Position numbers and translations under genes: made by a program. A stretch of DNA of 47,804 nt from Ignavibacteria bacterium RIFOXYB12_FULL_35_14 (GTDB lineage: Bacteria > Bacteroidota > Ignavibacteria > Ignavibacteriales > Ignavibacteriaceae): contig MHAR01000004.1 in the NCBI GenBank assembly GCA_001803045.1, forward strand, positions 1 to 47,804. The letters are read 5' to 3'. Positions within the stretch are counted from its first letter, which is position 1; each line of letters opens with the position of its first letter. The notes under the pieces are model-generated. The model saw only the letters and a list, made by a program, of their open reading frames with translations. It was not told the origin of the DNA and searched no databases. Of the stretch, positions 223-29,322 are shown one piece after another.

Positions 223-1812
223 CTAAGCATTCTTCAAATCAGGATGCAGAAGTTCTCCTTCAGAAGAAGCAACTGCAACTGCAACTGCAGCATCTCCGGT
301 AATATTTGTGATAGTTCTGCACATGTCAAGAATCCTATCAACACCTAAAATTAATGCAATTCCCTCCTCTGGAATTCCAACTGATTTTAAAACTATGATC
401 AGCATTATTATTCCAACTCCGGGCACAGGCGCTGTTCCTATTGAAGCAAGTGTTGCAGTTAACACAATCGTAAGCTGCTGCATGAAATTTAAATCCATTC
501 CAAAAACTTGAGCAATAAACACTGCCGCTACTCCTTGATAAAGTGCAGTGCCATCCATGTTAATTGTTGCACCTAATGGAAGCACAAAGCTTGTTATTGA
601 TTTTGACACACCAAGATTTTCTTGGCAACACTCCATGTTCACAGGCAATGTCGCAGCACTTGAACTTGTACTGAATGCAATTGTTTGTGCTTTCCTCATT
701 CCTTTAAAGAAAGTAGACAGTTTTATTTTGCTAAATAATTTTACTATCAGAGTGTAAGTACCGAGCGTATGCGTAAATAATCCAAATAGAACAGCAGCAA
801 CATACCAAAAAAGTGTTTGGAGAATATCGAAACCAAATTCACCTACGGTTGCCGAGATTAGTGCAAAAACACCAATGGGTGCAATCAGCATTATGAGATC
901 AACCATTTTTATCATGGCTTCACTTAATCCATCAAAAAATTTAATTACTGGTTCACCCTTTGATTTTGGGATGAGACTGAGAACCAATCCTAACATTAAA
1001 GCAAATAAAACTATTTGAAGCATCTCAGCATTTGCAATTGCAGCAAATGGATTTTTGGGAATGAGCTTCACAATTTCATCTATGAAATTATATTCTTCAG
1101 CCGTACCGATCTTTACTTCAACATCCTTACTGTAAACTGAAAGTAACCTTTCCTTAGTTTCAACATTCATTCTCTTACCCGGTTGAATCAGATTTGCTGC
1201 CACTAAGCCTATGCTGATCGCAATTGAAGTTGTCACCAGATAGAATGAAATTGTTTTTCCACCAATTCTTGCAAACTTTTTTATATCTCCTAAGCTTGCG
1301 GCTCCAACTGTAAGCGACCCCAAAACCAATGGAATTGCAATCATAGTCAGCAGTCGAATGAAAATGTCTCCGAGCCATTTTATTTTGGTTGCAATGGTTT
1401 TTTCTTTATTAACTAAAATTACATTTGGGAGAATCGAGAAATCAAATTTTCCATCCGCTTCGGTTGAAAAATATTTTTCAAGAATTATCGAAACCTTTCT
1501 ATCTGATGCTTGAACTTTTTTAAAGTAATTGATAATTTCAATTTGCTGATGAGCTTTAAATGATATTGAGTCGAAAGTCATTCCTTCAGATACAAACGAA
1601 AATTTTTTCCAATCTCTAATGCTTATGGTTTTTGTTTCATCGATTGCTTTGTAAGAAATAATAAGTGCTGTACGGCTTACATTAAAAATGGATCCGAAAA
1701 TTGCTCCTGCTATCAAAGCAATTAAAATCTGATTGTGAAGTTTTGGCAGTTTGATTTTCATGACGGCGGTTAAAATATAAAAAATGAGTAATATTTCCTT
1801 TCTGAAAATCAT
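223..1812 (-). CDS. Dicarboxylate/amino acid:cation symporter (SDF/DAACS family)
   Basis: This is probably a sodium- or proton-coupled uptake carrier for glutamate, aspartate or C4-dicarboxylates in the inner membrane. The family landmarks of GltPh/GltP are present in order: a serine-rich HP1 loop (SSSAATLP), the NMDGT motif of TM7, the HP2 loop (GTAPVPGVG), and TM8 with DRILDMCRTITNITGD, which holds the Asp, Arg and Asn substrate and cation ligands. The protein is long for the family (529 against about 420 residues). The excess is a hydrophilic insert of roughly 110 residues after TM1 (about residues 45-150). The start is uncertain: a second Met at residue 18 (position 1761) precedes a typical KLPKLHNQILIALIAG first helix and may be the true start. 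No clear ribosome binding site marks either one. It is transcribed divergently from the operon at 2051. The family is secure; the substrate is inferred. Confidence 0.9.
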   Translation of the reverse strand: MIFRKEILLIFYILTAVMKIKLPKLHNQILIALIAGAIFGSIFNVSRTALIISYKAIDETKTISIRDWKKFSFVSEGMTFDSISFKAHQQIEIINYFKKVQASDRKVSIILEKYFSTEADGKFDFSILPNVILVNKEKTIATKIKWLGDIFIRLLTMIAIPLVLGSLTVGAASLGDIKKFARIGGKTISFYLVTTSIAISIGLVAANLIQPGKRMNVETKERLLSVYSKDVEVKIGTAEEYNFIDEIVKLIPKNPFAAIANAEMLQIVLFALMLGLVLSLIPKSKGEPVIKFFDGLSEAMIKMVDLIMLIAPIGVFALISATVGEFGFDILQTLFWYVAAVLFGLFTHTLGTYTLIVKLFSKIKLSTFFKGMRKAQTIAFSTSSSAATLPVNMECCQENLGVSKSITSFVLPLGATINMDGTALYQGVAAVFIAQVFGMDLNFMQQLTIVLTATLASIGTAPVPGVGIIMLIIVLKSVGIPEEGIALILGVDRILDMCRTITNITGDAAVAVAVASSEGELLHPDLKNA

Positions 1813-1947
1813 TTTTAATATTTATTCTATTTAATAATTATACAGCTGACGGTAATATTCATTCTAAATCCCTTTACTTTTTACATTATTTTTTTATATT
1901 GCAGTTAGTTTAATTATGCGGCAGCAACGATTTTCAAATTTTTATAT

Positions 1948-2050
1948 CAGACGGTTACGGGTATAATTGCCGCAAGGCTTGCTGTTCAATCAGCCAACCT
2001 GTGCTGAATAAAAAATCTTCTTTTCATCTCCATAAATAAGGAGGTCACAA
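1948..2050 (+). promoter_or_regulatory. Structured leader and strong RBS ahead of the opine-type operon
   Basis: Positions 1948-1956 can pair with 1996-2006 as a nine-pair stem with two single-base bulges. Two small inner hairpins are possible (1958-1960 with 1970-1972, and 1976-1979 with 1992-1995), giving a three-way junction shape. A near-consensus Shine-Dalgarno (AAGGAGGT, 2038-2045) follows, at good spacing from the ATG at 2051. The fold was worked out by hand. I recognise no named riboswitch class and see no cobalamin-riboswitch B12 box. It could be a regulatory leader or a chance fold. Confidence 0.35.
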
Positions 2051-3175
2051 ATGAATTCTGGTAATTCATCCGAATTAAAATCGCCTATAGCGGTTCTTGG
2101 TGCAGGTCATGGTGGAATGGCTATGTCTGGGCATTTAGCATTAATGGGTTTTGATGTTAGGTTATTTAATAGAAGCGAGGAGCGACTCTGGGGTGTTAAA
2201 TCAACGGGTGAAGTTGAAGTGGTTGGAGAAATTGAAGGACATGGAAAAATTTCATTGGCAACAACTTCAATTAAAGATGCAATAGAAGATGCTGAACTAA
2301 TTATGGTTGTAGTACCTGCTACCGGTCATAAATGGATGGCTGAACATATTGCTCCATTTCTAAAAGATGGTCAAATAATAGTCCTTCATCCCGGGAGAAC
2401 TTTTGGTGCTTTAGAGGTTAAACAGGTGCTTGATAGTAATGGCGTAAGTGCAGATGTTATTGTGGCGGAAGCTCAAACATTTATTTATGCTTCTAGAGTC
2501 GTAGGTCCCGCTCAGGTAAGAATATTCCGAATCAAAAATTCAATTCCGGTTGCTTCCATTAGAGCTCATCTCATCCCAAATGTTCTAAAGAAATTGCGAA
2601 TTGCCTATCCCCAATTCGTTGCAGGCGACAATATCTTTAAGACAAGTTTAGAAAACATTGGCAGCATTTTTCATCCGGCACTTACCATTCTAAATGCCGG
2701 TTGGATTGAAGATGATGCTGAGTTCCAATTTTATCACGAAGGCGCTACTCCTTCAGTAGTTAAAGTCTTAGAATCAATTGATAAAGAAAGAGTTTCAGTA
2801 GCTGAATCATTAGGTATAAGAGCGTTAACTGCAAAAGAATGGCTTTATTTAGCATATGGTGTTACTGGAGAAAATTTGTTCGACGCAATGCGTAGAAACG
2901 CTGGTTATCGAGGTATCATGGCACCTCGAACATTATCAGTTCGGTATCTTACTGAAGATGTTCCAACAAGTCTGGTTCCAATAGCTTCTATTGGGAAAAA
3001 ATTTGGAGTCGATACACCCGTTATGAATTCCTTAATTGAATTAGCTTCCAGACTTAATGGATGTAATTATTGGGAAGAGGGTCGAACAGTTCAAAAACTT
3101 GGCATTGAAAATCTTTCATTAAAAGAATTAAGACTTTTAGCTATTGGAGAGTACGATGCTAAAATTAAATCTTGA
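2051..3175 (+). CDS. NAD(P)-dependent octopine/nopaline (opine) dehydrogenase family protein
   Basis: The family reductively joins the amino group of an amino acid to a 2-oxo acid, or runs the reverse oxidation, using NAD(P)H. The N-terminus is a Rossmann fold with VLGAGHGGMAMSGHLALMG (about residues 15-33). The second half matches the helical octopine/nopaline dehydrogenase domain, including NIGSIFHPALT (about residues 206-216), whose His is the expected catalytic base. The length (374) is normal. The start is fixed by the strong AAGGAGGT upstream. It is the first gene of a tight plus-strand cluster with a cobalamin mutase, an asparagine-synthetase-like enzyme and a MarC-type membrane protein. 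That suggests biosynthesis of a modified amino acid rather than simple opine catabolism, but the substrates cannot be read from the sequence. Confidence 0.85.
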   Translation: MNSGNSSELKSPIAVLGAGHGGMAMSGHLALMGFDVRLFNRSEERLWGVKSTGEVEVVGEIEGHGKISLATTSIKDAIEDAELIMVVVPATGHKWMAEHIAPFLKDGQIIVLHPGRTFGALEVKQVLDSNGVSADVIVAEAQTFIYASRVVGPAQVRIFRIKNSIPVASIRAHLIPNVLKKLRIAYPQFVAGDNIFKTSLENIGSIFHPALTILNAGWIEDDAEFQFYHEGATPSVVKVLESIDKERVSVAESLGIRALTAKEWLYLAYGVTGENLFDAMRRNAGYRGIMAPRTLSVRYLTEDVPTSLVPIASIGKKFGVDTPVMNSLIELASRLNGCNYWEEGRTVQKLGIENLSLKELRLLAIGEYDAKIKS

Positions 3176-3205
3176 TCATTCACCTTACGCAAAGGTGCAG
3201 AGTGC

Positions 3206-3254
3206 GAACCGAGTTCCTGACGCATAGTTCTAAAAATCAAAGGAACGGGGTTTG
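3206..3254 (+). repeat. Diverged copy of the first-hairpin repeat family between operon genes
   Basis: A left arm at 3206-3218 (GAACCGAGTTCCT) pairs imperfectly with 3241-3253 (AGGAACGGGGTTT). It is followed by TTTGTTTGCA, the same flank seen after the hairpins at 16366, 17565 and 19077. The 142-base spacer also has two tight hairpins, CACCTT/AAGGTG at 3181-3197 and CTCGCG/CGTGAG near 3275-3289. They could attenuate or process the operon mRNA between its first and second genes. Relationship to the repeat family is inferred from arm and flank similarity. Confidence 0.4.
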
Positions 3255-3317
3255 TTTGCAAATTTTCATCTTTGCCTCGCGTAACGTGAGTTAATCAATT
3301 AAAGAAAGGAGCTTCGT

Positions 3318-4952
3318 ATGAAAAAAATATTAGGAGCTGCACTCGGTAATTGTGTGCATGTTGGGGGCTTACATCATTTCTTAAAGATAGCAGAATCTGA
3401 AGGTTTTAATACAGCATCCTTAGGTCCAGCAGTTTCAATCCAAAGAATCGTTGAGGGCATAAAATCCGAGAAACCAGATTTAGTGGCAATTAGTTATAGG
3501 CTCACACCAGAAGTTGCAAAAAATCTTTTTGAGGAATTGAAATCTACGCTGCGAGTAGAAAACTTATTAAAAATTAAATTAGTTTTTGGCGGCACTCCGC
3601 CTGTAGCATTTGAAGCGGAAAAATCTGGAATATTTGAAAAAGTATTTTCAGGCGGTGAATCCATCAATGAAATCAAATCTTATCTGAGAGGTTCTAAGGG
3701 AAAAGCAGATCAATTTTCGTTTCCGGATAATCTTTTAGATCGTATAAAACAAAAATACCCGTATCCCCTGCTGCGACATCATTTTGGAAGACCTTCGGTA
3801 GAAGAAACGATAAATGGTGTTAAGCAAATTGCGGAGGCAGAAGTATGCGATATAATATCGCTTGGCACCGATCAGAGTGCTCAAGAATATTTTTTTCATC
3901 CTGAACGAATGGATCCACAGGAAGATGGTGCTGGTGGAGTGCCTGTTCGCACACCTGTCGATCTCAAAGCTATTTATTCAAACTCTCGAACCGGTAACTA
4001 TCCTTTGCTGAGATGTTATGCAGGAACAAACGATCTGCTCAAATGGGCTGAGATGAGCGTTGACACTATTAAGAATGCTTGGGCAGCAATTCCCTTGTGC
4101 TGGTACAGCGTAATAGATGGAAGATCAAATAGATCTATTTCTGAAGCTATCCGGGAAAACCAAAGCGTAATGAAATGGTATGCGGAAAAAGGAATACCCG
4201 TAGAGGTAAATGAATCACATCAATGGAGCTTGCGTGATGCACATGATTCGCTTGCCGTTACGATGGCATTTCTTGCTGCATACAACGCTAAACATATGGG
4301 AGTAAAAGATTACGTTTCACAATTCATGTTTAATACTCCTCCTGGTACATCGCCTCAAATGGATATTGCCAAAATGCTAGCAAAGAAGGAATTGATTGAA
4401 GAATTAGAAGACGATAACTTCAATGTCATTCGAGAGGTTCGTGCAGGAATAGCCCACTTCTCTTCGATACCATCAGTAGCTCAAGGGCAATTGGCTGCAT
4501 CTGCTTTGATAAGCTTAGCATTAGATCCGCATATCCTTCATGTAGTCGGTTTCAGCGAAGGAGATCATGCTGTTTATGCTGATGAACTAATCAATAGCTG
4601 TAACATCGTACATGGCGTTCTCCACAATTGTCTTTATGGTTTACCAGATATGAGTATAGACCCGATTGTCATCAAACGAAAAAATGAATTAAAGCAGGAT
4701 GCTCAGATTTTATTAAACTCACTTAAAAAACTTGATACAGATGGTTATGGAGATTCTTGGATGAATCCAGATTTAATTGAGAAGGCAGTCAAAATAGGAT
4801 TATTAGATGCGCCCCACTTCAATGGAAATCCACATCTTTGCGGAAAGATTCTTACAAGATTAATTGATGGAGCATGGTACGCTATCGAAAATAATTCTGG
4901 AAAACCGATTAACGAAACTCAAAGAATCAAAAGTATCTTAAACAATTTATAA
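3318..4952 (+). CDS. Cobalamin-dependent mutase, one-chain B12-binding domain plus glutamate-mutase-E-like barrel
   Basis: The first ~130 residues look like a B12-binding Rossmann domain. They start with a GNCVHVGG segment that resembles the DxHxxG base-off/His-on motif, but with Cys in place of the Asp. The remaining ~400 residues resemble the TIM barrel of methylaspartate (glutamate) mutase E chain. The shared features are a YAGTNDLLK stretch, a SISEAIRENQSVMKWYAEKG helix, a NESHQWSLRDAHDSLAVTMA block and a later PPGTSPQMDIAKM block. Glutamate mutase normally keeps these parts in two subunits (MutS and GlmE), so a 544-residue fusion is unusual. It has a good ribosome binding site (AAAGGAG, 3304-3310) and lies 11 bases from the next gene. 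A carbon-skeleton or amino-group rearrangement of an amino acid is expected. The exact substrate is unknown, and a non-mutase B12 role cannot be excluded. Confidence 0.6.
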   Translation: MKKILGAALGNCVHVGGLHHFLKIAESEGFNTASLGPAVSIQRIVEGIKSEKPDLVAISYRLTPEVAKNLFEELKSTLRVENLLKIKLVFGGTPPVAFEAEKSGIFEKVFSGGESINEIKSYLRGSKGKADQFSFPDNLLDRIKQKYPYPLLRHHFGRPSVEETINGVKQIAEAEVCDIISLGTDQSAQEYFFHPERMDPQEDGAGGVPVRTPVDLKAIYSNSRTGNYPLLRCYAGTNDLLKWAEMSVDTIKNAWAAIPLCWYSVIDGRSNRSISEAIRENQSVMKWYAEKGIPVEVNESHQWSLRDAHDSLAVTMAFLAAYNAKHMGVKDYVSQFMFNTPPGTSPQMDIAKMLAKKELIEELEDDNFNVIREVRAGIAHFSSIPSVAQGQLAASALISLALDPHILHVVGFSEGDHAVYADELINSCNIVHGVLHNCLYGLPDMSIDPIVIKRKNELKQDAQILLNSLKKLDTDGYGDSWMNPDLIEKAVKIGLLDAPHFNGNPHLCGKILTRLIDGAWYAIENNSGKPINETQRIKSILNNL

Positions 4953-4963
4953 GGAGAACAAAA

Positions 4964-6304
4964 ATGGCTGGTATAGTTGGAATTAAAAGAAAAGGTGAAA
5001 AAGGATTAGTAGAAAAAATGCTCAATAAAATTTCGCACAGAGGGAATACTGGAAAGAGAATTATTGAAACTGATGAAGCAACAATTGGAGTTGTTTGGAC
5101 TTCTCCACAAAAAGATTCTGCTTTTAGCTCTTTAGAAAAAGTTTTTATTCAAGATACTGCTGGTAATGGTCATCTTGCAAAGGCTGAAATACTGAACGGC
5201 AATCTTTTTCTTGAGAGGGATGAATTAGGAATAGCACCGCTTTACTTTGGAAAAACAAAAGACGATGTCCCATGTTTTGCTTCGGAAGTAAAATCTTTAT
5301 TAACTGCAACAAATGATATAAATGAATTGCTTCCCGGATATAAATTTTCTGATGGAATACTTACTAAATATTTCATCCTACAAAAAAAGCAAGAAATTAA
5401 AGACAATCCTGAAGCAATTGCAAAAGTGTTAAGGAAGCTTCTTGAAGACTCTATTTCAAAAAGAATTAAAACGGATTTGTTTGGTTCATGGTTATCCGGT
5501 GGGTTAGATTCAAGTACAATTGCCGCGATTGCACGACCTTTTGTAAAAACATTCCATACATTTTCAGCAGGTTTGAAAAACGCAACTGATCTGGCTTATG
5601 CCAGAGAAGTTGCATCTCACATCAAGTCAACTCACCATGAAATAATCGTTAACTTTGATGAAATGCTTAAGCAACTGCCAACCGTTATTTATCATCTTGA
5701 ATCGTTTGATGCATTATTAATAAGATCCAGCATAATAAATTATATTGCAGCAAAAGCAGCATCAGATTATGTTCCGGAAATATTTTCCGGTGAAAGCGGC
5801 GATGAACTTTTTGCCGGATATGAATACATAAAATCGCTGCCACCAGAATCCATTCCCGACGAATTGATTGACATAACTGCCCGTTTGCACAATACAGCTT
5901 TTCAAAGAGTTGATAGATGTGCCTCAGCGCATTCAACAATTCCTCATGTTGTTTTCGCTGATCCAAATGTATTTAGCTATGCATTTACTATTCCCTCAAA
6001 ATATAAATTGAAAGATGGTGTAGAAAAATGGATACTAAGACAAGCCGTTAAAGATGTACTCCCCTCCTCTGTTCTTAACCGAACAAAAGCTAAATTTTGG
6101 GAAGGTGCCGGAGTTTTTGAATTAATTTCAGATTATGCTTCAAAAAAAATTAGTGATAAAGATTTCTCAAACGAAAGAATCCTCCCTAACGGTTGGAATT
6201 TAAGTTCAAAAGAAGAATTAATGTACTACAGAATTTTTAAAGAACATTTCGGAGAAGCTTCGAATTATAATTGGATGGGAAGAACAGAAGGAACAACTAA
6301 TTAA
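4964..6304 (+). CDS. Asparagine-synthetase-like amide ligase lacking the glutaminase cysteine
   Basis: Architecture is a reduced N-terminal class-II amidotransferase domain (about residues 1-130) plus a C-terminal ATP-pyrophosphatase synthetase domain. The PP-loop SGGLDSS is intact (about residues 180-186), followed by SGESGDELFAGYEY and KAKFWEGAG, equivalents of the AsnB SGEGSDE and KEQFSDGVG motifs. The N-terminus reads MAGIVGI where active enzymes read MCGIVGI. The nucleophilic Cys2 is Ala, and the NGEIYN glutaminase motif is also missing, although RDELGIAPLYFG survives. Glutamine hydrolysis should therefore be dead. The same loss occurs in beta-lactam synthetase and carbapenam synthetase, which make an intramolecular amide; use of free ammonia or another amine is the alternative. 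A good RBS (AAGGAGAA) sits 11 bases after the mutase gene. The carboxylate is presumably adenylated, but the substrate is unknown. Confidence 0.8.
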   Translation: MAGIVGIKRKGEKGLVEKMLNKISHRGNTGKRIIETDEATIGVVWTSPQKDSAFSSLEKVFIQDTAGNGHLAKAEILNGNLFLERDELGIAPLYFGKTKDDVPCFASEVKSLLTATNDINELLPGYKFSDGILTKYFILQKKQEIKDNPEAIAKVLRKLLEDSISKRIKTDLFGSWLSGGLDSSTIAAIARPFVKTFHTFSAGLKNATDLAYAREVASHIKSTHHEIIVNFDEMLKQLPTVIYHLESFDALLIRSSIINYIAAKAASDYVPEIFSGESGDELFAGYEYIKSLPPESIPDELIDITARLHNTAFQRVDRCASAHSTIPHVVFADPNVFSYAFTIPSKYKLKDGVEKWILRQAVKDVLPSSVLNRTKAKFWEGAGVFELISDYASKKISDKDFSNERILPNGWNLSSKEELMYYRIFKEHFGEASNYNWMGRTEGTTN

Positions 6305-6305
6305 T

Positions 6306-6908
6306 ATGGATATAATTAAACAAATTTTGCATGACTATCTAGTTCTATTCAGCATGGTGAATGCCTTTGGCAATTTACCAATATTTGCTGATTTAACTCA
6401 CGATATGGATACAGGACTGCGCAATACGATTTATAGAATTGCTGTGTTAACAGGCGGCAGCATTGTGTTAGTGTTTGCACTATTTGGGGATTTTATGCTA
6501 GATAATATCTTTGATGTCAACACAAATTCTTTTAAAATCGCCGGGGGAATTTTAGTCTTCATTGTTGCTGCTAAAGGCGTTATGTCCAACTCCAAAATTT
6601 TTAGTCCTCACGTTTCTGGTGATAAAAGTATAGCAATTTTCCCGCTTGGATTTCCATATTTAGCTGGACCAGGTACAATACTCACAACCATATTATTGTT
6701 TAGAAACAGCGAAATTCTAATTACAGTACCATCTGCTGTTTTAGTTTATCTATCCATTTTACCAATTTTGCATTTAGCACCGCTTGTGACTCGTGTTTTC
6801 GGTCAATTGGGGATCTCAGTCATATCTCGAATTCTCTACATATTTATTAGTGCTAAAGCAGTCGAGTTTGTACTTCAAGGATTAAGCGGTTTTTTGAAAA
6901 CACAGTAA
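6306..6908 (+). CDS. MarC family (UPF0056) integral membrane protein
   Basis: This is a 200-residue protein with about six hydrophobic helices. It shows the family signatures NAFGNLPIFADLT near the N-terminus, FKIAGGILVFIVAAKG in the middle and the conserved FPLGFPYLAGPGTI stretch (about residues 116-129). MarC-type proteins are inner-membrane proteins of poorly known function; some annotation calls them neutral amino acid transporters. Its ATG begins one base after the stop codon region of the amide-ligase gene, so it is almost certainly translated as the last cistron of that operon. That position makes it a reasonable exporter for whatever the three upstream enzymes make, but this is inference from context only. 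Confidence 0.85.
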   Translation: MDIIKQILHDYLVLFSMVNAFGNLPIFADLTHDMDTGLRNTIYRIAVLTGGSIVLVFALFGDFMLDNIFDVNTNSFKIAGGILVFIVAAKGVMSNSKIFSPHVSGDKSIAIFPLGFPYLAGPGTILTTILLFRNSEILITVPSAVLVYLSILPILHLAPLVTRVFGQLGISVISRILYIFISAKAVEFVLQGLSGFLKTQ

Positions 6909-7112
6909 AAAATATGAGGTTATACAATCATTTAACTCATCATTCGCCGTGGTTTTTGATGCTTTGATATTCCCATTTAATAAAATCATTTCCAATTTCG
7001 GATTCTCCGTTGCAAAAAAAAATATATTCTGCATAAAACTAACTTACACCTTGCTATTAAATGAATAATCTCGAAGAGTTCTTTATCTTTGGAGTAATTG
7101 ATATTTTAAAAA

Positions 7113-8915
7113 ATGAAATTTCGTATTAAATATTTTAAGGTAAATTTAAAATTAATTCTAAGGGAAGTATTAACATTCCTTCGGCAGCGAGTTGAGTTTA
7201 AGACTTTTATCATTCTTTCGAGTATTATCGTTGGTATCGCTTCAGGACTGGCGGCTGTACTGCTAAAAAATATAGTGCATTTTTTTCAACAAGAACCAAC
7301 AAAATTCTTAAATGAAATAGGATTCGATTATTTTCTACTATTCACTCCTCTGTTAGGAATTATTTTATCCGTAGCTGTAGTCCAACTATTTTTCAACGGA
7401 AAAATGACTACGGGGCTTAGCAACGTCATATACACTATTCTAAGAAAATCCTCAGATATTCCAAGGCGGGATTTACTTTCTCATATTTTTACTAGCGGAA
7501 TTACAATTGGTTTAGGCGGGTCTGCAGGTTTGGAGGCTCCAATTGTAGTTACGGGGGCAGCCATAGGTTCAAACGCTGCCAAGGAAGTTCGTTTCAATTA
7601 TCAGACACGAACTTTGTTGCTTGCATGTGGATCGGCAGCAGGAATTTCAGCAATATTTAATAGCCCAATTGCCGGAGTTATTTTTGCATTTGAAGTTCTT
7701 CTTCCCGAATTTTCAATCGCTTCTTTTATACCATTGTTAATTGCTTCAGCTTCTTCAGCGGTCTTATCAAAATTTTTATATAGCGGACAGTTATTTTATT
7801 TAGTTACTAAAACATGGCAGCTTGAATCGATACCTTACTATATCATTTTAGGCATTCTGTGCGGTCTAGTTTCATTGTACATTATAAAAATCACTCATTT
7901 TACCGATAATAAGTTTAATAGGTTCTCCAATAAAATATTAAAAGCTTTCGTAGGTGGGTTCATTTTGTGTGTATTGATATTTCTCATTCCTCCACTTTAT
8001 GGAGAAGGATACAACAGCATAATGGATCTACTATCCGGGAATTATGAAACAATAATAAATAATAATTTGTTACTAAAAATTCTTGATAAGGATATTGCAA
8101 TAATTTTGTTTGCTGTTCTAATTGTGTTGTTCAAAGTTATTGCAACCGCTCTTACAATAAACTCCGGCGGAAACGGCGGCATTATCGCTCCATCTTTATT
8201 TACTGGAGCATTTACCGGTTTCCTTCTTGCTAATTTGATGAAATATTTTGGTATTATCGATCTCAACCATCCGAACTTTATAGCAGTTGGCATGGCTGGA
8301 ATACTTAGTGGAGTATTGCATGCACCATTAACAGGTATTTTTCTAATTGTAGAAGTTACGGGTGGTTATAACTTGATAGTACCATTAATGATTGTAAGTG
8401 CATTATCATTTTTTATTTCAAGATATTTTCATCCTCACTCGATTTATACTGCATCTTTAGCTAAAAAAGGAATTGAGTTCAGGTCGGAAAAAGAGAAGTA
8501 TTTTATTCAACAAATTGATATAGTTGAACTCGTTGAAACGGATTTTATTAAGATTTCTCCAAATATGACTATCGGAAACCTCATGAAAAATATTGCCGCC
8601 ACCAAAAGAAATATTTTTCCGGTTGTAGATGAGAATGAGAAGCTTTTAGGTGTAATAACTCTAAATGATATTAGAGAAGTGATGATGAATTCCGAAGTAT
8701 ATAATGTTCTATTAGCTTATGAAATTATGAATCCCAATTTTTATTCCATTGAACTTAATTCCGACATCAATAAAATTCTTGACATTTTTGAAGACCAGCA
8801 AATTTGGAATGTTGCAGTAACTCAAAAGGGCAAGTATCTGGGTTTTATATCTAAATCAAATTTGTTTAACAAGTATATCTCCGCTTTGTCGGAAAATGAA
8901 AAAGAAAAAATTTAA
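7113..8915 (+). CDS. ClC-family chloride channel with C-terminal CBS pair
   Basis: A voltage-gated-chloride-channel type membrane domain (about residues 20-430) is followed by two CBS domains (about 460-595) that usually bind adenine nucleotides. The GSAGLEAPIV segment is the GREGP-type gate with its glutamate kept. GGNGGIIAPSLFTGA is the GxFxP-type motif near the second half. The position equivalent to the internal proton glutamate of E. coli ClC (IIEEMRP) reads AFEVLLPE, so the second glutamate is Val. Channel-like anion conduction is more likely than proton-coupled exchange. The start is the only good ATG, without a strong RBS. It is separated from the upstream operon by 204 bases without recognisable features and probably has its own promoter. 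Confidence 0.93.
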   Translation: MKFRIKYFKVNLKLILREVLTFLRQRVEFKTFIILSSIIVGIASGLAAVLLKNIVHFFQQEPTKFLNEIGFDYFLLFTPLLGIILSVAVVQLFFNGKMTTGLSNVIYTILRKSSDIPRRDLLSHIFTSGITIGLGGSAGLEAPIVVTGAAIGSNAAKEVRFNYQTRTLLLACGSAAGISAIFNSPIAGVIFAFEVLLPEFSIASFIPLLIASASSAVLSKFLYSGQLFYLVTKTWQLESIPYYIILGILCGLVSLYIIKITHFTDNKFNRFSNKILKAFVGGFILCVLIFLIPPLYGEGYNSIMDLLSGNYETIINNNLLLKILDKDIAIILFAVLIVLFKVIATALTINSGGNGGIIAPSLFTGAFTGFLLANLMKYFGIIDLNHPNFIAVGMAGILSGVLHAPLTGIFLIVEVTGGYNLIVPLMIVSALSFFISRYFHPHSIYTASLAKKGIEFRSEKEKYFIQQIDIVELVETDFIKISPNMTIGNLMKNIAATKRNIFPVVDENEKLLGVITLNDIREVMMNSEVYNVLLAYEIMNPNFYSIELNSDINKILDIFEDQQIWNVAVTQKGKYLGFISKSNLFNKYISALSENEKEKI

Positions 8916-28643: not shown

Positions 28644-28715
28644 TGACTCCAAGGGGATTCGAACCCCTATTACCGCCGTGAAAGGGCGAGGTCCTAACCA
28701 TTAGACGATGGAGCC
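28644..28715 (-). tRNA. tRNA-Glu (anticodon TTC)
   Basis: Read on the minus strand, the acceptor GGCTCCA pairs with TGGAGTC, with A as discriminator. The anticodon loop is CTTTCAC with stem CGCC/GGCG, and the T loop is TTCGAAT. CCA is not encoded. It is the last gene of the tRNA cluster, about 150 bases before the DUF3160 start. Confidence 0.97.
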
Positions 28716-28833
28716 ATTCACCAAATAACAAAATTCAATAAACAAATTATAGATAAATCTCAATTTTCAAGCTCCAAATTCTTGAAGCATTTGGAATTTG
28801 ATATTTGCTATTTGGGATTTGCTTTATGCTTGG

Positions 28834-28908
28834 GGTGAGCGATGGGATTTGAACCCACGACCCCCAGGGCCACAACCTGGTGCTCTAACCAACTGAGCTA
28901 CGCTCACC
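28834..28908 (-). tRNA. tRNA-His (anticodon GTG)
   Basis: The acceptor GTGAGCG pairs with CGCTCAC. The anticodon stem is CCAGG/CCTGG around TTGTGGC. The genome encodes G at position -1 (28908) and the discriminator is C (28834), the identity pair expected for bacterial tRNA-His. Confidence 0.97.
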
Positions 28909-29028
28909 ATCAATAAAAACATCAAAACAACAAAAAAAAATTTCAAATATATTCCAAAATCAAATCTCAAAATTCAAAACCATATAGTCCTCTGGAATTT
29001 GTGTTTTGGGATTTGTCATTTACCCGTG

Positions 29029-29102
29029 TACGCCCGAGTGGAATCGAACCACTAACCTACAGCTTAGAAGGCTGTTGCTCTATCCGATTGAGCTACGGGC
29101 GC
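29029..29102 (-). tRNA. tRNA-Arg (anticodon TCT)
   Basis: The anticodon stem is ACAGC/GCTGT around CTTCTAA, which reads AGA and AGG codons. The acceptor is GCGCCCG with CGGGCGT (first pair G-T wobble), and the T arm is TTCGATT. Confidence 0.95.
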
Positions 29103-29246
29103 TCAATATAAAAATCACAAAAGGCAATTCTCAAAAAACAAACAAACCGCAAATACAAACCTTCAATAAGTCCTATTTCATTATTTAGGATTTTGAAATT
29201 GTTATTTATTTGTCATTTGTCTACTGAAATTTGAGATTTAACCAAG

Positions 29247-29322
29247 TCGGGGCGGCAGGATTCGAACCTGCGACCTCCTGCTCCCAAAGCAGGCGCGATG
29301 AACCGGGCTACGCTACGCCCCG
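29247..29322 (-). tRNA. tRNA-Pro (anticodon TGG)
   Basis: The acceptor CGGGGCG pairs with CGCCCCG and the anticodon stem CCTGC/GCAGG encloses TTTGGGA. It is the first intact tRNA of the minus-strand cluster Pro-Arg-His-Glu. Spacers between the four genes are AT-rich, with repeated ATTTGnnATTTG-like words. Confidence 0.97.

What the first reader, a model, noticed from the sequence alone, without database searches (positions are those of the whole stretch)
2051..6908. Four-gene operon joining opine-type dehydrogenase, one-chain B12 mutase, amide ligase and MarC exporter
The genes are tightly packed (spacings 142, 11 and 1 base), each with its own good RBS or overlap-level spacing. The combination is an opine-type reductive coupling enzyme, a glutamate-mutase-like isomerase, a synthetase with a dead glutaminase, and a membrane protein of a family proposed to move amino acids. 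I know of no named pathway with this set. A plausible reading is synthesis and export of a modified amino acid or opine-like metabolite. The order of steps is inference.
Basis: partly seen in the sequence, partly recalled or inferred. Interest (0 to 1): 0.78.

Follow-up and report, generated by a model that had tools for sequence, protein, structure and literature searches.

The report
Opine-enzyme/B12-mutase operon, perhaps for osmolytes
A small gene set that couples an opine-making enzyme with an unusual vitamin-B12 enzyme recurs in distant bacteria and archaea, sometimes beside genes for salt and turgor control, so it may make an undescribed protective solute, although its product is unknown.

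Summary
The four genes and their spacings are as described. The conserved core is not the four-gene set but a pair: opine dehydrogenase (ODH) and a single-chain B12 mutase, together on one strand in 46 of 52 loci (chosen by the mutase) from at least seven phyla. An asparagine-synthetase-like gene without catalytic Cys (ASN) joins them in Ignavibacteriota, Omnitrophota and a few archaea; five other loci have a D-Ala-D-Ala-ligase-like and a racemase gene instead. MarC was found in none of 70 other stretches. The mutase folds like glutamate mutase, but the substrate arginines are replaced by other invariant residues, so free glutamate is probably not its substrate. New clue, from relatives: a c-di-AMP riboswitch upstream (3 of 20 loci of one class, one clade), MscS channels within two genes (3 of 23 lineages, about 0.03 expected; chosen after looking), trehalose genes, CLC channels, a V-type ATPase operon. 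Best reading: synthesis of an opine-type, partly amidated solute for osmotic and ion balance. The window itself has no riboswitch match and no MscS neighbour; chemistry and product are unknown. Searches of a partial library listed no description.

The parts
2051..3175 (+). ODH: opine-dehydrogenase family protein, 374 aa; nearest solved relative N-(1-D-carboxylethyl)-L-norvaline dehydrogenase (1bg6)
   Evidence: PF02317 155.8 bits; 1bg6_A 240.8 bits over residues 13-361; H208, R298, D303 in columns at least 95% conserved among 45 ODHs
3176..3317 (+). 142-base spacer with a possible hairpin; Shine-Dalgarno-like AAAGGAG near its end
   Evidence: fold z -1.96; no Rfam match near
3318..4952 (+). 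single-chain B12 mutase, 544 aa: B12-binding Rossmann domain (about 1-126) fused to a glutamate-mutase-E-type barrel (about 134-542)
   Evidence: AF2 pLDDT 84.0, pTM 0.71; Foldseek 1cb7_B E 3e-15; VIA Z 32.0, rmsd 3.4, 374 residues; hhalign with a GlmE profile E 6e-6, probability 85
4964..6304 (+). ASN: asparagine-synthetase-B-like amide ligase, 446 aa, shortened N-terminal domain without catalytic Cys, intact SGGLDSS loop
6306..6908 (+). MarC/NAAT family membrane protein, 200 aa; seen in the operon in this window only
   Evidence: PF01914 123.2 bits; 0 of 70 other stretches
7113..8915 (+). CLC chloride channel with CBS domains, 204 bases after MarC; a neighbour, not a proven member
   Evidence: PF00654 272.5 bits; CLC also near the pair in L091 and L122

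Best explanation
The operon makes a small opine-type acid, partly amidated in this lineage, that serves osmotic and ion homeostasis. Proposed working: (1) ODH reductively couples an amino acid with a 2-oxo acid using NAD(P)H (inferred from family and conserved catalytic residues); (2) the single-chain adenosylcobalamin enzyme isomerises the carbon skeleton of the amino acid or of the opine itself, in a pocket rebuilt for something other than free glutamate (fold by prediction, substrate unknown); (3) ASN uses ATP and free ammonia, or another amine, to turn a carboxylate into an amide, which would lower the net negative charge as one expects of a compatible solute (inferred); (4) MarC here, MscS-type channels elsewhere, would release the solute (inferred). 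Shown: the genes, their linkage, the predicted fold, the missing ASN cysteine, the riboswitch, MscS, CLC and V-ATPase contexts in relatives. Inferred: all chemistry, the order of steps and the osmotic role.
For: Linkage: ODH and mutase on one strand in 46 of 52 loci; of the 44 with both ORFs called, 40 are direct neighbours and 19 show a 4-base overlap; pairwise identities of the two proteins correlate over 43 loci (Mantel r 0.78, 0 of 5000 permutations; Spearman 0.48; deep branches and shared ancestry contribute). Context in relatives: c-di-AMP riboswitch RF00379 (cut-off 38 bits) upstream of ODH-mutase in L012 (81.7), of ASN-mutase in L121 (79.0) and of a decayed ASN, ODH and mutase in L122 (88.0); the L012 aptamer is followed by a hairpin with a T run (sequence). 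c-di-AMP in osmotic and potassium control: PMC5919688 (passages). MscS (PF00924) within two genes in L019 (Ignavibacteriota), L088 (Omnitrophota group) and L007/L090 (Sifarchaeum group); 52 such genes in 37 genomes, one each in G330 and G705, and that one is the neighbour; 0.034 expected in 71 flank genes of 23 lineages, 3 seen, P about 7e-6 (rough and not corrected for choosing the family after looking). Trehalose genes (GT20, trehalose-phosphatase, TreT) follow the MscS gene in L019. CLC near the pair in the window, L091 and L122. V-type ATPase genes follow ODH-mutase in 13 of 20 Bacillota-class loci. MutL, partner of B12 mutases, is over the cut-off in 11 of 37 carrier genomes and in 0 of 12 others.
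Against: The window has no Rfam riboswitch, and the single PF00924 gene of its genome is on another contig (C47); MutL is not in its genome. Riboswitch: 3 of 20 loci of that class, all in one clade, so perhaps one event; 0 of 11 other bacterial loci scanned; archaeal loci not scanned. The V-ATPase neighbourhood is also one clade. In most archaeal loci I recognised no osmotic neighbour by eye. ASN of this type is in only 8 of 148 genomes of the archaeal phylum, 2 of them (G741, G823) without a mutase match. L121 and L124 have no ODH beside the mutase. Loci were chosen by the mutase, so whether such ODHs occur without it was not tested. The distant mutases of L124 and L125 lie among glycosyltransferase or capsule genes (by eye). 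No substrate, product or expression is known.
Confidence: 0.42

Rival explanations
1. Envelope building block: the pair makes an opine-type or rearranged amino acid that is attached to surface polysaccharide or cell wall; the amide ligase or ATP-grasp enzyme performs the attachment.
For: Divergent relatives L125 and L124 lie among polysaccharide genes (by eye); five loci carry a D-Ala-D-Ala-ligase-like gene (L008: PF07478, 90.3 bits) and a racemase gene (L089: ornithine racemase model 421.8 bits, cut-off 480). A c-di-AMP riboswitch controls a wall peptidase in Corynebacterium (title in listing).
Against: In the window and in most loci I recognised no polysaccharide or wall genes among the nearest genes (by eye, not searched). 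MscS, CLC and trehalose neighbours do not fit. L123-L125 form a separate deep branch.
Confidence: 0.2
2. Fermentation or redox balancing: ODH regenerates NAD+ by forming an opine from a 2-oxo acid and an amino acid, as in anaerobic marine invertebrates (recalled), and the mutase feeds or drains the amino acid pool.
For: ODH is of the opine type; many carriers are uncultured lineages that I recall as anaerobic.
Against: No need for a dedicated B12 mutase or an amide ligase; the riboswitch, MscS and V-ATPase contexts are explained only loosely.
Confidence: 0.14
3. Glutamate route: the mutase converts glutamate to 3-methylaspartate, ASN amidates it to 3-methylasparagine, and ODH turns that into an opine.
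For: Fold is that of glutamate mutase; MutL lies beside the mutase in L011 and L100; a Methylobacter plasmid joins a GlmS-like and a GlmE protein with asparagine synthetase A and an EamA transporter. ASN keeps the aspartate-side Arg of AsnB (R254, invariant in 9 rows) but has LL for TT before it in the window (roles recalled).
Against: GlmE R66, R100, R149, E171, Y177, Y181 and K326, identical in 8 GlmE-type proteins, map to H155, Q189, Y234, A256, W262, R269 and V410. No MutL in the window's genome.
Confidence: 0.14
4. Exported specialised metabolite or signal, with MarC as exporter.
For: MarC follows ASN by one base; the family is named for amino-acid transport.
Against: MarC not found in 70 other stretches; the mutase is present in 20 of 29 genomes of one class and 57 of 148 of one phylum, more like a general trait than a strain-specific product.
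Confidence: 0.1

Closest known systems
Glutamate mutase (methylaspartate mutase) GlmS/GlmE, Clostridium cochlearium, 1cb7
   Same: Same kind of B12-binding domain and barrel: Z 32.0, 374 residues aligned, hhalign E 6e-6; E330 kept as E414
   Different: One chain instead of two, B12 domain in front; DxHxxG has Cys for Asp in 38 of 50; substrate arginines and further pocket residues replaced by other invariant residues; MutL in 11 of 37 carrier genomes only
N-(1-D-carboxylethyl)-L-norvaline dehydrogenase (1bg6) and octopine dehydrogenase (3c7a)
   Same: Full-length match to 1bg6, 240.8 bits; catalytic His, Arg, Asp positions kept
   Different: Linked to a B12 mutase in 46 of 52 loci chosen by the mutase; substrates unknown
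Asparagine synthetase B (1ct9) and beta-lactam synthetase (1jgt)
   Same: Asparagine synthase domain with SGGLDSS; 146.2 bits to 1ct9, 67.1 to 1jgt
   Different: No catalytic Cys in 10 of 10 shortened ASN, about 50 residues of the glutaminase domain missing; full forms with Cys stand near the mutase in L117 and L121
N-acetylglutaminylglutamine amide pathway (osmolyte made with an AsnB-like amidotransferase)
   Same: Works alike in outline: an AsnB-like enzyme amidates a small solute (recalled); its model TIGR03104 matches ASN with 104.1 bits
   Different: Far below that model's cut-off of 570.1; no B12 enzyme or opine dehydrogenase in that pathway (recalled)

Membership tests
Opine dehydrogenase (PF02317 type) | NAD-binding domain plus Octopine_DH domain | tested here: met
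   PF02317 155.8 bits, cut-off 30; 1bg6 full-length
Opine dehydrogenase (PF02317 type) | Catalytic His, Arg, Asp (roles recalled from octopine dehydrogenase) | tested here: met
   H208, R298, D303 in columns at least 95% conserved in 45 rows
Opine dehydrogenase (PF02317 type) | Reductive coupling of amino acid and 2-oxo acid | not testable with these tools
   needs assay
Glutamate mutase | Rossmann B12 domain and GlmE barrel fold | tested here: met
   (predicted model)
Glutamate mutase | Arginine claw R66/R100/R149 and E171 (roles recalled) | tested here: not met
   H155, Q189, Y234 in 50 of 50; place of E171 variable and never Glu; distant alignment, so the residue mapping is tentative
Glutamate mutase | B12 motif DxHxxG | tested here: inconclusive
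   H14 and G17 in 50 of 50; Asp in 12, Cys in 38 of 50, window Cys
Glutamate mutase | Reactivating partner MutL/GlmL in the genome | tested here: not met
   none in the window's genome; over the cut-off in 11 of 49 genomes searched
Ornithine/lysine aminomutase (PLP and B12) | PLP lysine 11 residues after the B12 histidine in ornithine aminomutase (recalled) | tested here: not met
   Ala in 43 of 50, Leu, Val or Ser in 7, never Lys
Asparagine synthetase B (glutamine-dependent) | N-terminal catalytic Cys and full glutaminase domain | tested here: not met
   Ala in the window; no Cys in 10 of 10 shortened forms
Asparagine synthetase B (glutamine-dependent) | Synthetase domain with ATP loop SGGLDSS | tested here: met
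Beta-lactam synthetase | Intramolecular amide formation, catalytic Tyr in place of the AsnB Glu (recalled) | tested here: inconclusive
   ASN has SGE at that place, as in AsnB; activity untested
MarC/NAAT transporters | MarC domain | tested here: met
   PF01914 123.2 bits, cut-off 23.9; TIGR00427 116.9 bits, cut-off 99.2
c-di-AMP riboswitch regulon | RF00379 aptamer upstream | tested here: not met
   no match in the window; present in relatives L012, L121, L122
Compatible-solute biosynthesis | Product accumulates with osmolarity | not testable with these tools
   needs metabolomics

The most novel reading that the evidence does not exclude
A widespread, horizontally spread pathway of bacteria and archaea in which a new class of single-chain B12 mutase rearranges the carbon skeleton of an opine or its precursor to give an undescribed family of compatible solutes, put under c-di-AMP control in some bacteria.
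Probability: 0.28. Interest if true: 0.86.

Novelty: new variant of a known kind. Interest (0 to 1): 0.64.

Why it matters
If right, B12-dependent radical chemistry would be tied to osmotic adaptation, opines would join the list of microbial osmolytes, and a mutase present in 57 of 148 sampled genomes of the Sifarchaeum phylum and 20 of 29 of one Bacillota class would get a function. Even if the osmotic reading fails, an opine dehydrogenase/B12-mutase pair with a non-glutamate pocket is a defined target for finding a new carbon-skeleton rearrangement, and the riboswitch-bearing loci give a testable handle on its regulation.

Tried and rejected
Rejected: plain glutamate mutase (pocket residues replaced); ornithine or lysine aminomutase (no PLP lysine), although Z 26.1 and 29.2 show a related barrel; opine metallophore (I recognised no metallophore genes in the neighbour lists, by eye); a conserved four-gene unit with MarC. 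A barrel-only profile found no glutamate mutase among PDB sequences, and hhalign with the single GlmE sequence gave only probability 1 and E 0.05; with a GlmE profile the link reached E 6e-6. RNA scans of the window gave nothing near the operon; the spacer motif is not repeated in the window. tblastn of plasmids with the mutase gave only 5 weak partial matches. PF06368 did not reach E 0.001 in the five genomes tried, G000 included, although some family members match it weakly. The promoter scan of 1800-7200 found fewer sites than shuffles and was not used.

Literature: searches were seen as listings (titles and starts of abstracts, lists cut: 20 of 28, 15 of 1,625, 12 of 16, 8 of 37; two returned none); only PMC5919688 was opened, in passages. 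No listed title or abstract start described this gene pair. Most subscription papers are not held, so this is weak evidence of absence.

Limits: the MscS test assumes one gene per kilobase, counts lineages at under 70% mutase identity, and was made after the neighbours had been seen. CLC, trehalose and V-ATPase neighbours were not tested against a background. ORFs were called by my own script, which missed the mutase of L117 and the ODH of L122 (found by tblastn). L013 (split mutase ORF) and L117 are not in the mutase alignment; L123-L125 were left out of the hhalign profile but are in the counts. Roles of GlmE, AsnB, aminomutase and octopine dehydrogenase residues are recalled, not from a call. 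Neighbour genes without a Pfam call were named by eye.
Full report
What is there. Four + strand ORFs at 2051-3175, 3318-4952, 4964-6304 and 6306-6908 with gaps 142, 11 and 1. ODH matches Octopine_DH (155.8 bits) and CENDH 1bg6 nearly over its length (240.8 bits). The second protein has a B12-binding domain and a barrel that Pfam does not recognise in the window's sequence; of 11 family members, 4 match Met_asp_mut_E weakly (best E 1.9e-6). ASN is AsnB-like with Ala at the cysteine position. MarC is a NAAT-family membrane protein.

Conserved unit. The mutase was sought in several genome groups. Relatives: 4 of 59 match, 3 of them the true family and one in the B12 domain only. Phylum: 8 of 296 at E 0.001, of which G000 and G043 are the family, G266 a distant relative and 5 match in the B12 domain only. 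At E 1e-30: 5 of 124 genomes in the group of the Cloacimonadota locus (two of them, G404 and G446, the distant type), 4 of 35 Omnitrophota, 2 of 199 Neomarinimicrobiota, 57 of 148 in the phylum of Sifarchaeum (some are fragments) and 20 of 29 in a Bacillota class. A scan of named genomes gave 9 loci: Ignavibacteriales, Omnitrophota, Sifarchaeum, Armatimonadetes, Neomarinimicrobiota, Cloacimonadota (two), Bathyarchaeota, Bacillota; the Armatimonadetes genome falls into the Cloacimonadota group, hence 'at least seven phyla'. I fetched 52 loci including the window. ODH is on the same strand within 3.6 kb in 46 (44 with both ORFs called, plus L117 and L122 by tblastn); of the six others L007, L009, L093 and L101 are cut by the contig end and L121 and L124 show none. 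Among the 44, 40 are direct neighbours and 19 overlap by 4 bases. The loci were chosen by the mutase, so this does not say how often ODH occurs alone. The tree puts the window with three Ignavibacteriota sequences (support 99), next to Omnitrophota (81) and Bacillota (98), and mixes Sifarchaeum with bacterial phyla. Horizontal spread as a unit is the likely reading, supported by the correlation of identities (Mantel r 0.78, Spearman 0.48).

Amide step. ASN stands with the pair in 12 of 52 loci and near it in two further archaeal loci, L144 and L145; L142 and L143 carry ASN without the pair on the contig shown. In the archaeal phylum it is found in 8 of 148 genomes at E 1e-90, six of them with the mutase, so most archaeal carriers lack it. 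Ten shortened forms have no Cys; L117 and L121 keep a full glutaminase domain with Cys. In L008, L009, L013, L089 and L123 a D-Ala-D-Ala-ligase-like and a racemase gene accompany the mutase. A change of ligase type around a constant pair suggests that bond formation to an amine is a real step where such genes occur; that is inference.

Mutase. AF2 model with pLDDT 84.0 and pTM 0.71; best solved relatives are glutamate mutase E (Z 32.0), lysine 5,6-aminomutase (29.2) and ornithine 4,5-aminomutase (26.1). A profile of eight GlmE-type sequences aligns over most of the barrel at E 6e-6, probability 85. The eight keep R66, R100, R149, H150, E171, Y177, Y181, E214, K326 and E330; the window has H155, Q189, Y234, A235, A256, W262, R269, N298, V410 and E414. 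H155, Q189, Y234, W262, R269 and E414 are identical in 50 of 50 family members, as are R153, R232, R306 and R375. R153 and R232 lie two residues before the places of R66 and R149, so the claw may have moved along the strands, or the alignment may be off there. The aminomutase lysine is absent. MutL is over the cut-off in 11 of 37 carriers and 0 of 12 other genomes, not in G000. So: a carbon-skeleton mutase by fold, with a substrate that is probably not free glutamate.

Osmotic context, all from relatives. (a) c-di-AMP riboswitches at L012:355-523, L121:12661-12898 and L122:12881-13024, each on the coding strand upstream of the operon: 3 of 20 loci of the class, none in L116-L120 and L157-L168, none in 11 other bacterial loci; the three form one clade. 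In L122 a decayed ASN lies between RNA and ODH. (b) MscS genes (PF00924): L019 (second gene after ASN), L007 and L090 (directly before the mutase; L090 by blastp relation to L007 and), L088 (second gene after ODH); MscS-helix proteins (PF05552) directly after ODH in L006 (22.2 bits, cut-off 22), L086 (20.5, below it) and L088 (49.4), and a blastp relative in L087. (c) GT20, trehalose-phosphatase and TreT genes behind the MscS gene of L019. (d) CLC channels in the window, L091 and L122. (e) V-type ATPase genes behind the mutase in 13 of 20 Bacillota-class loci (subunits named by Pfam in L116 and L157); three of the other seven (L012, L167, L168) are cut at the mutase. A membrane pyrophosphatase stands before ODH in L165. 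Each line alone is modest, (a) and (e) rest on one clade each, and (b) was tested after the neighbours had been seen; together they point to turgor and ion balance. The reading is carried over to the window by homology; its own neighbours are an SDF symporter, MarC and a CLC channel.

Novelty. Families known; the combination and the mutase subfamily were not described in the listings I could see. I rate it a new variant of a known kind.

Noticed in passing
L129 (Methylobacter sp. YRD-M1 plasmid NZ_CP091425.1), 1-5267: Asparagine synthetase A, a GlmS-like B12 protein, a 505-aa protein with a PP-loop-like AYGGGKDS stretch, a GlmE homologue (PF06368, 294.6 bits) and an EamA transporter in a row: another mutase plus amide-forming cluster.
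   Followed up: partly
L125:8627-11559 (G266, same phylum as the window): Distant B12 mutase (621 aa, about 30% identity over the barrel) with ODH and an ATP-grasp gene among what look like polysaccharide genes.
   Followed up: no
L116, L118, L120, L157-L166: ODH-mutase genes stand just before V-type ATPase genes in 13 of 20 loci of one Bacillota class; the K subunit carries a TQG motif that I recall from sodium-type V-ATPases.
   Followed up: partly
L145:1716-2474, similar in L109, L110, L142: ArsR-type winged-helix regulator recurring near archaeal ODH-mutase or ASN genes (Pfam for L145; L109 and L110 by clustering, L142 by eye).
   Followed up: no
window 28644-29322: Four tRNA genes on the minus strand.
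   Followed up: no
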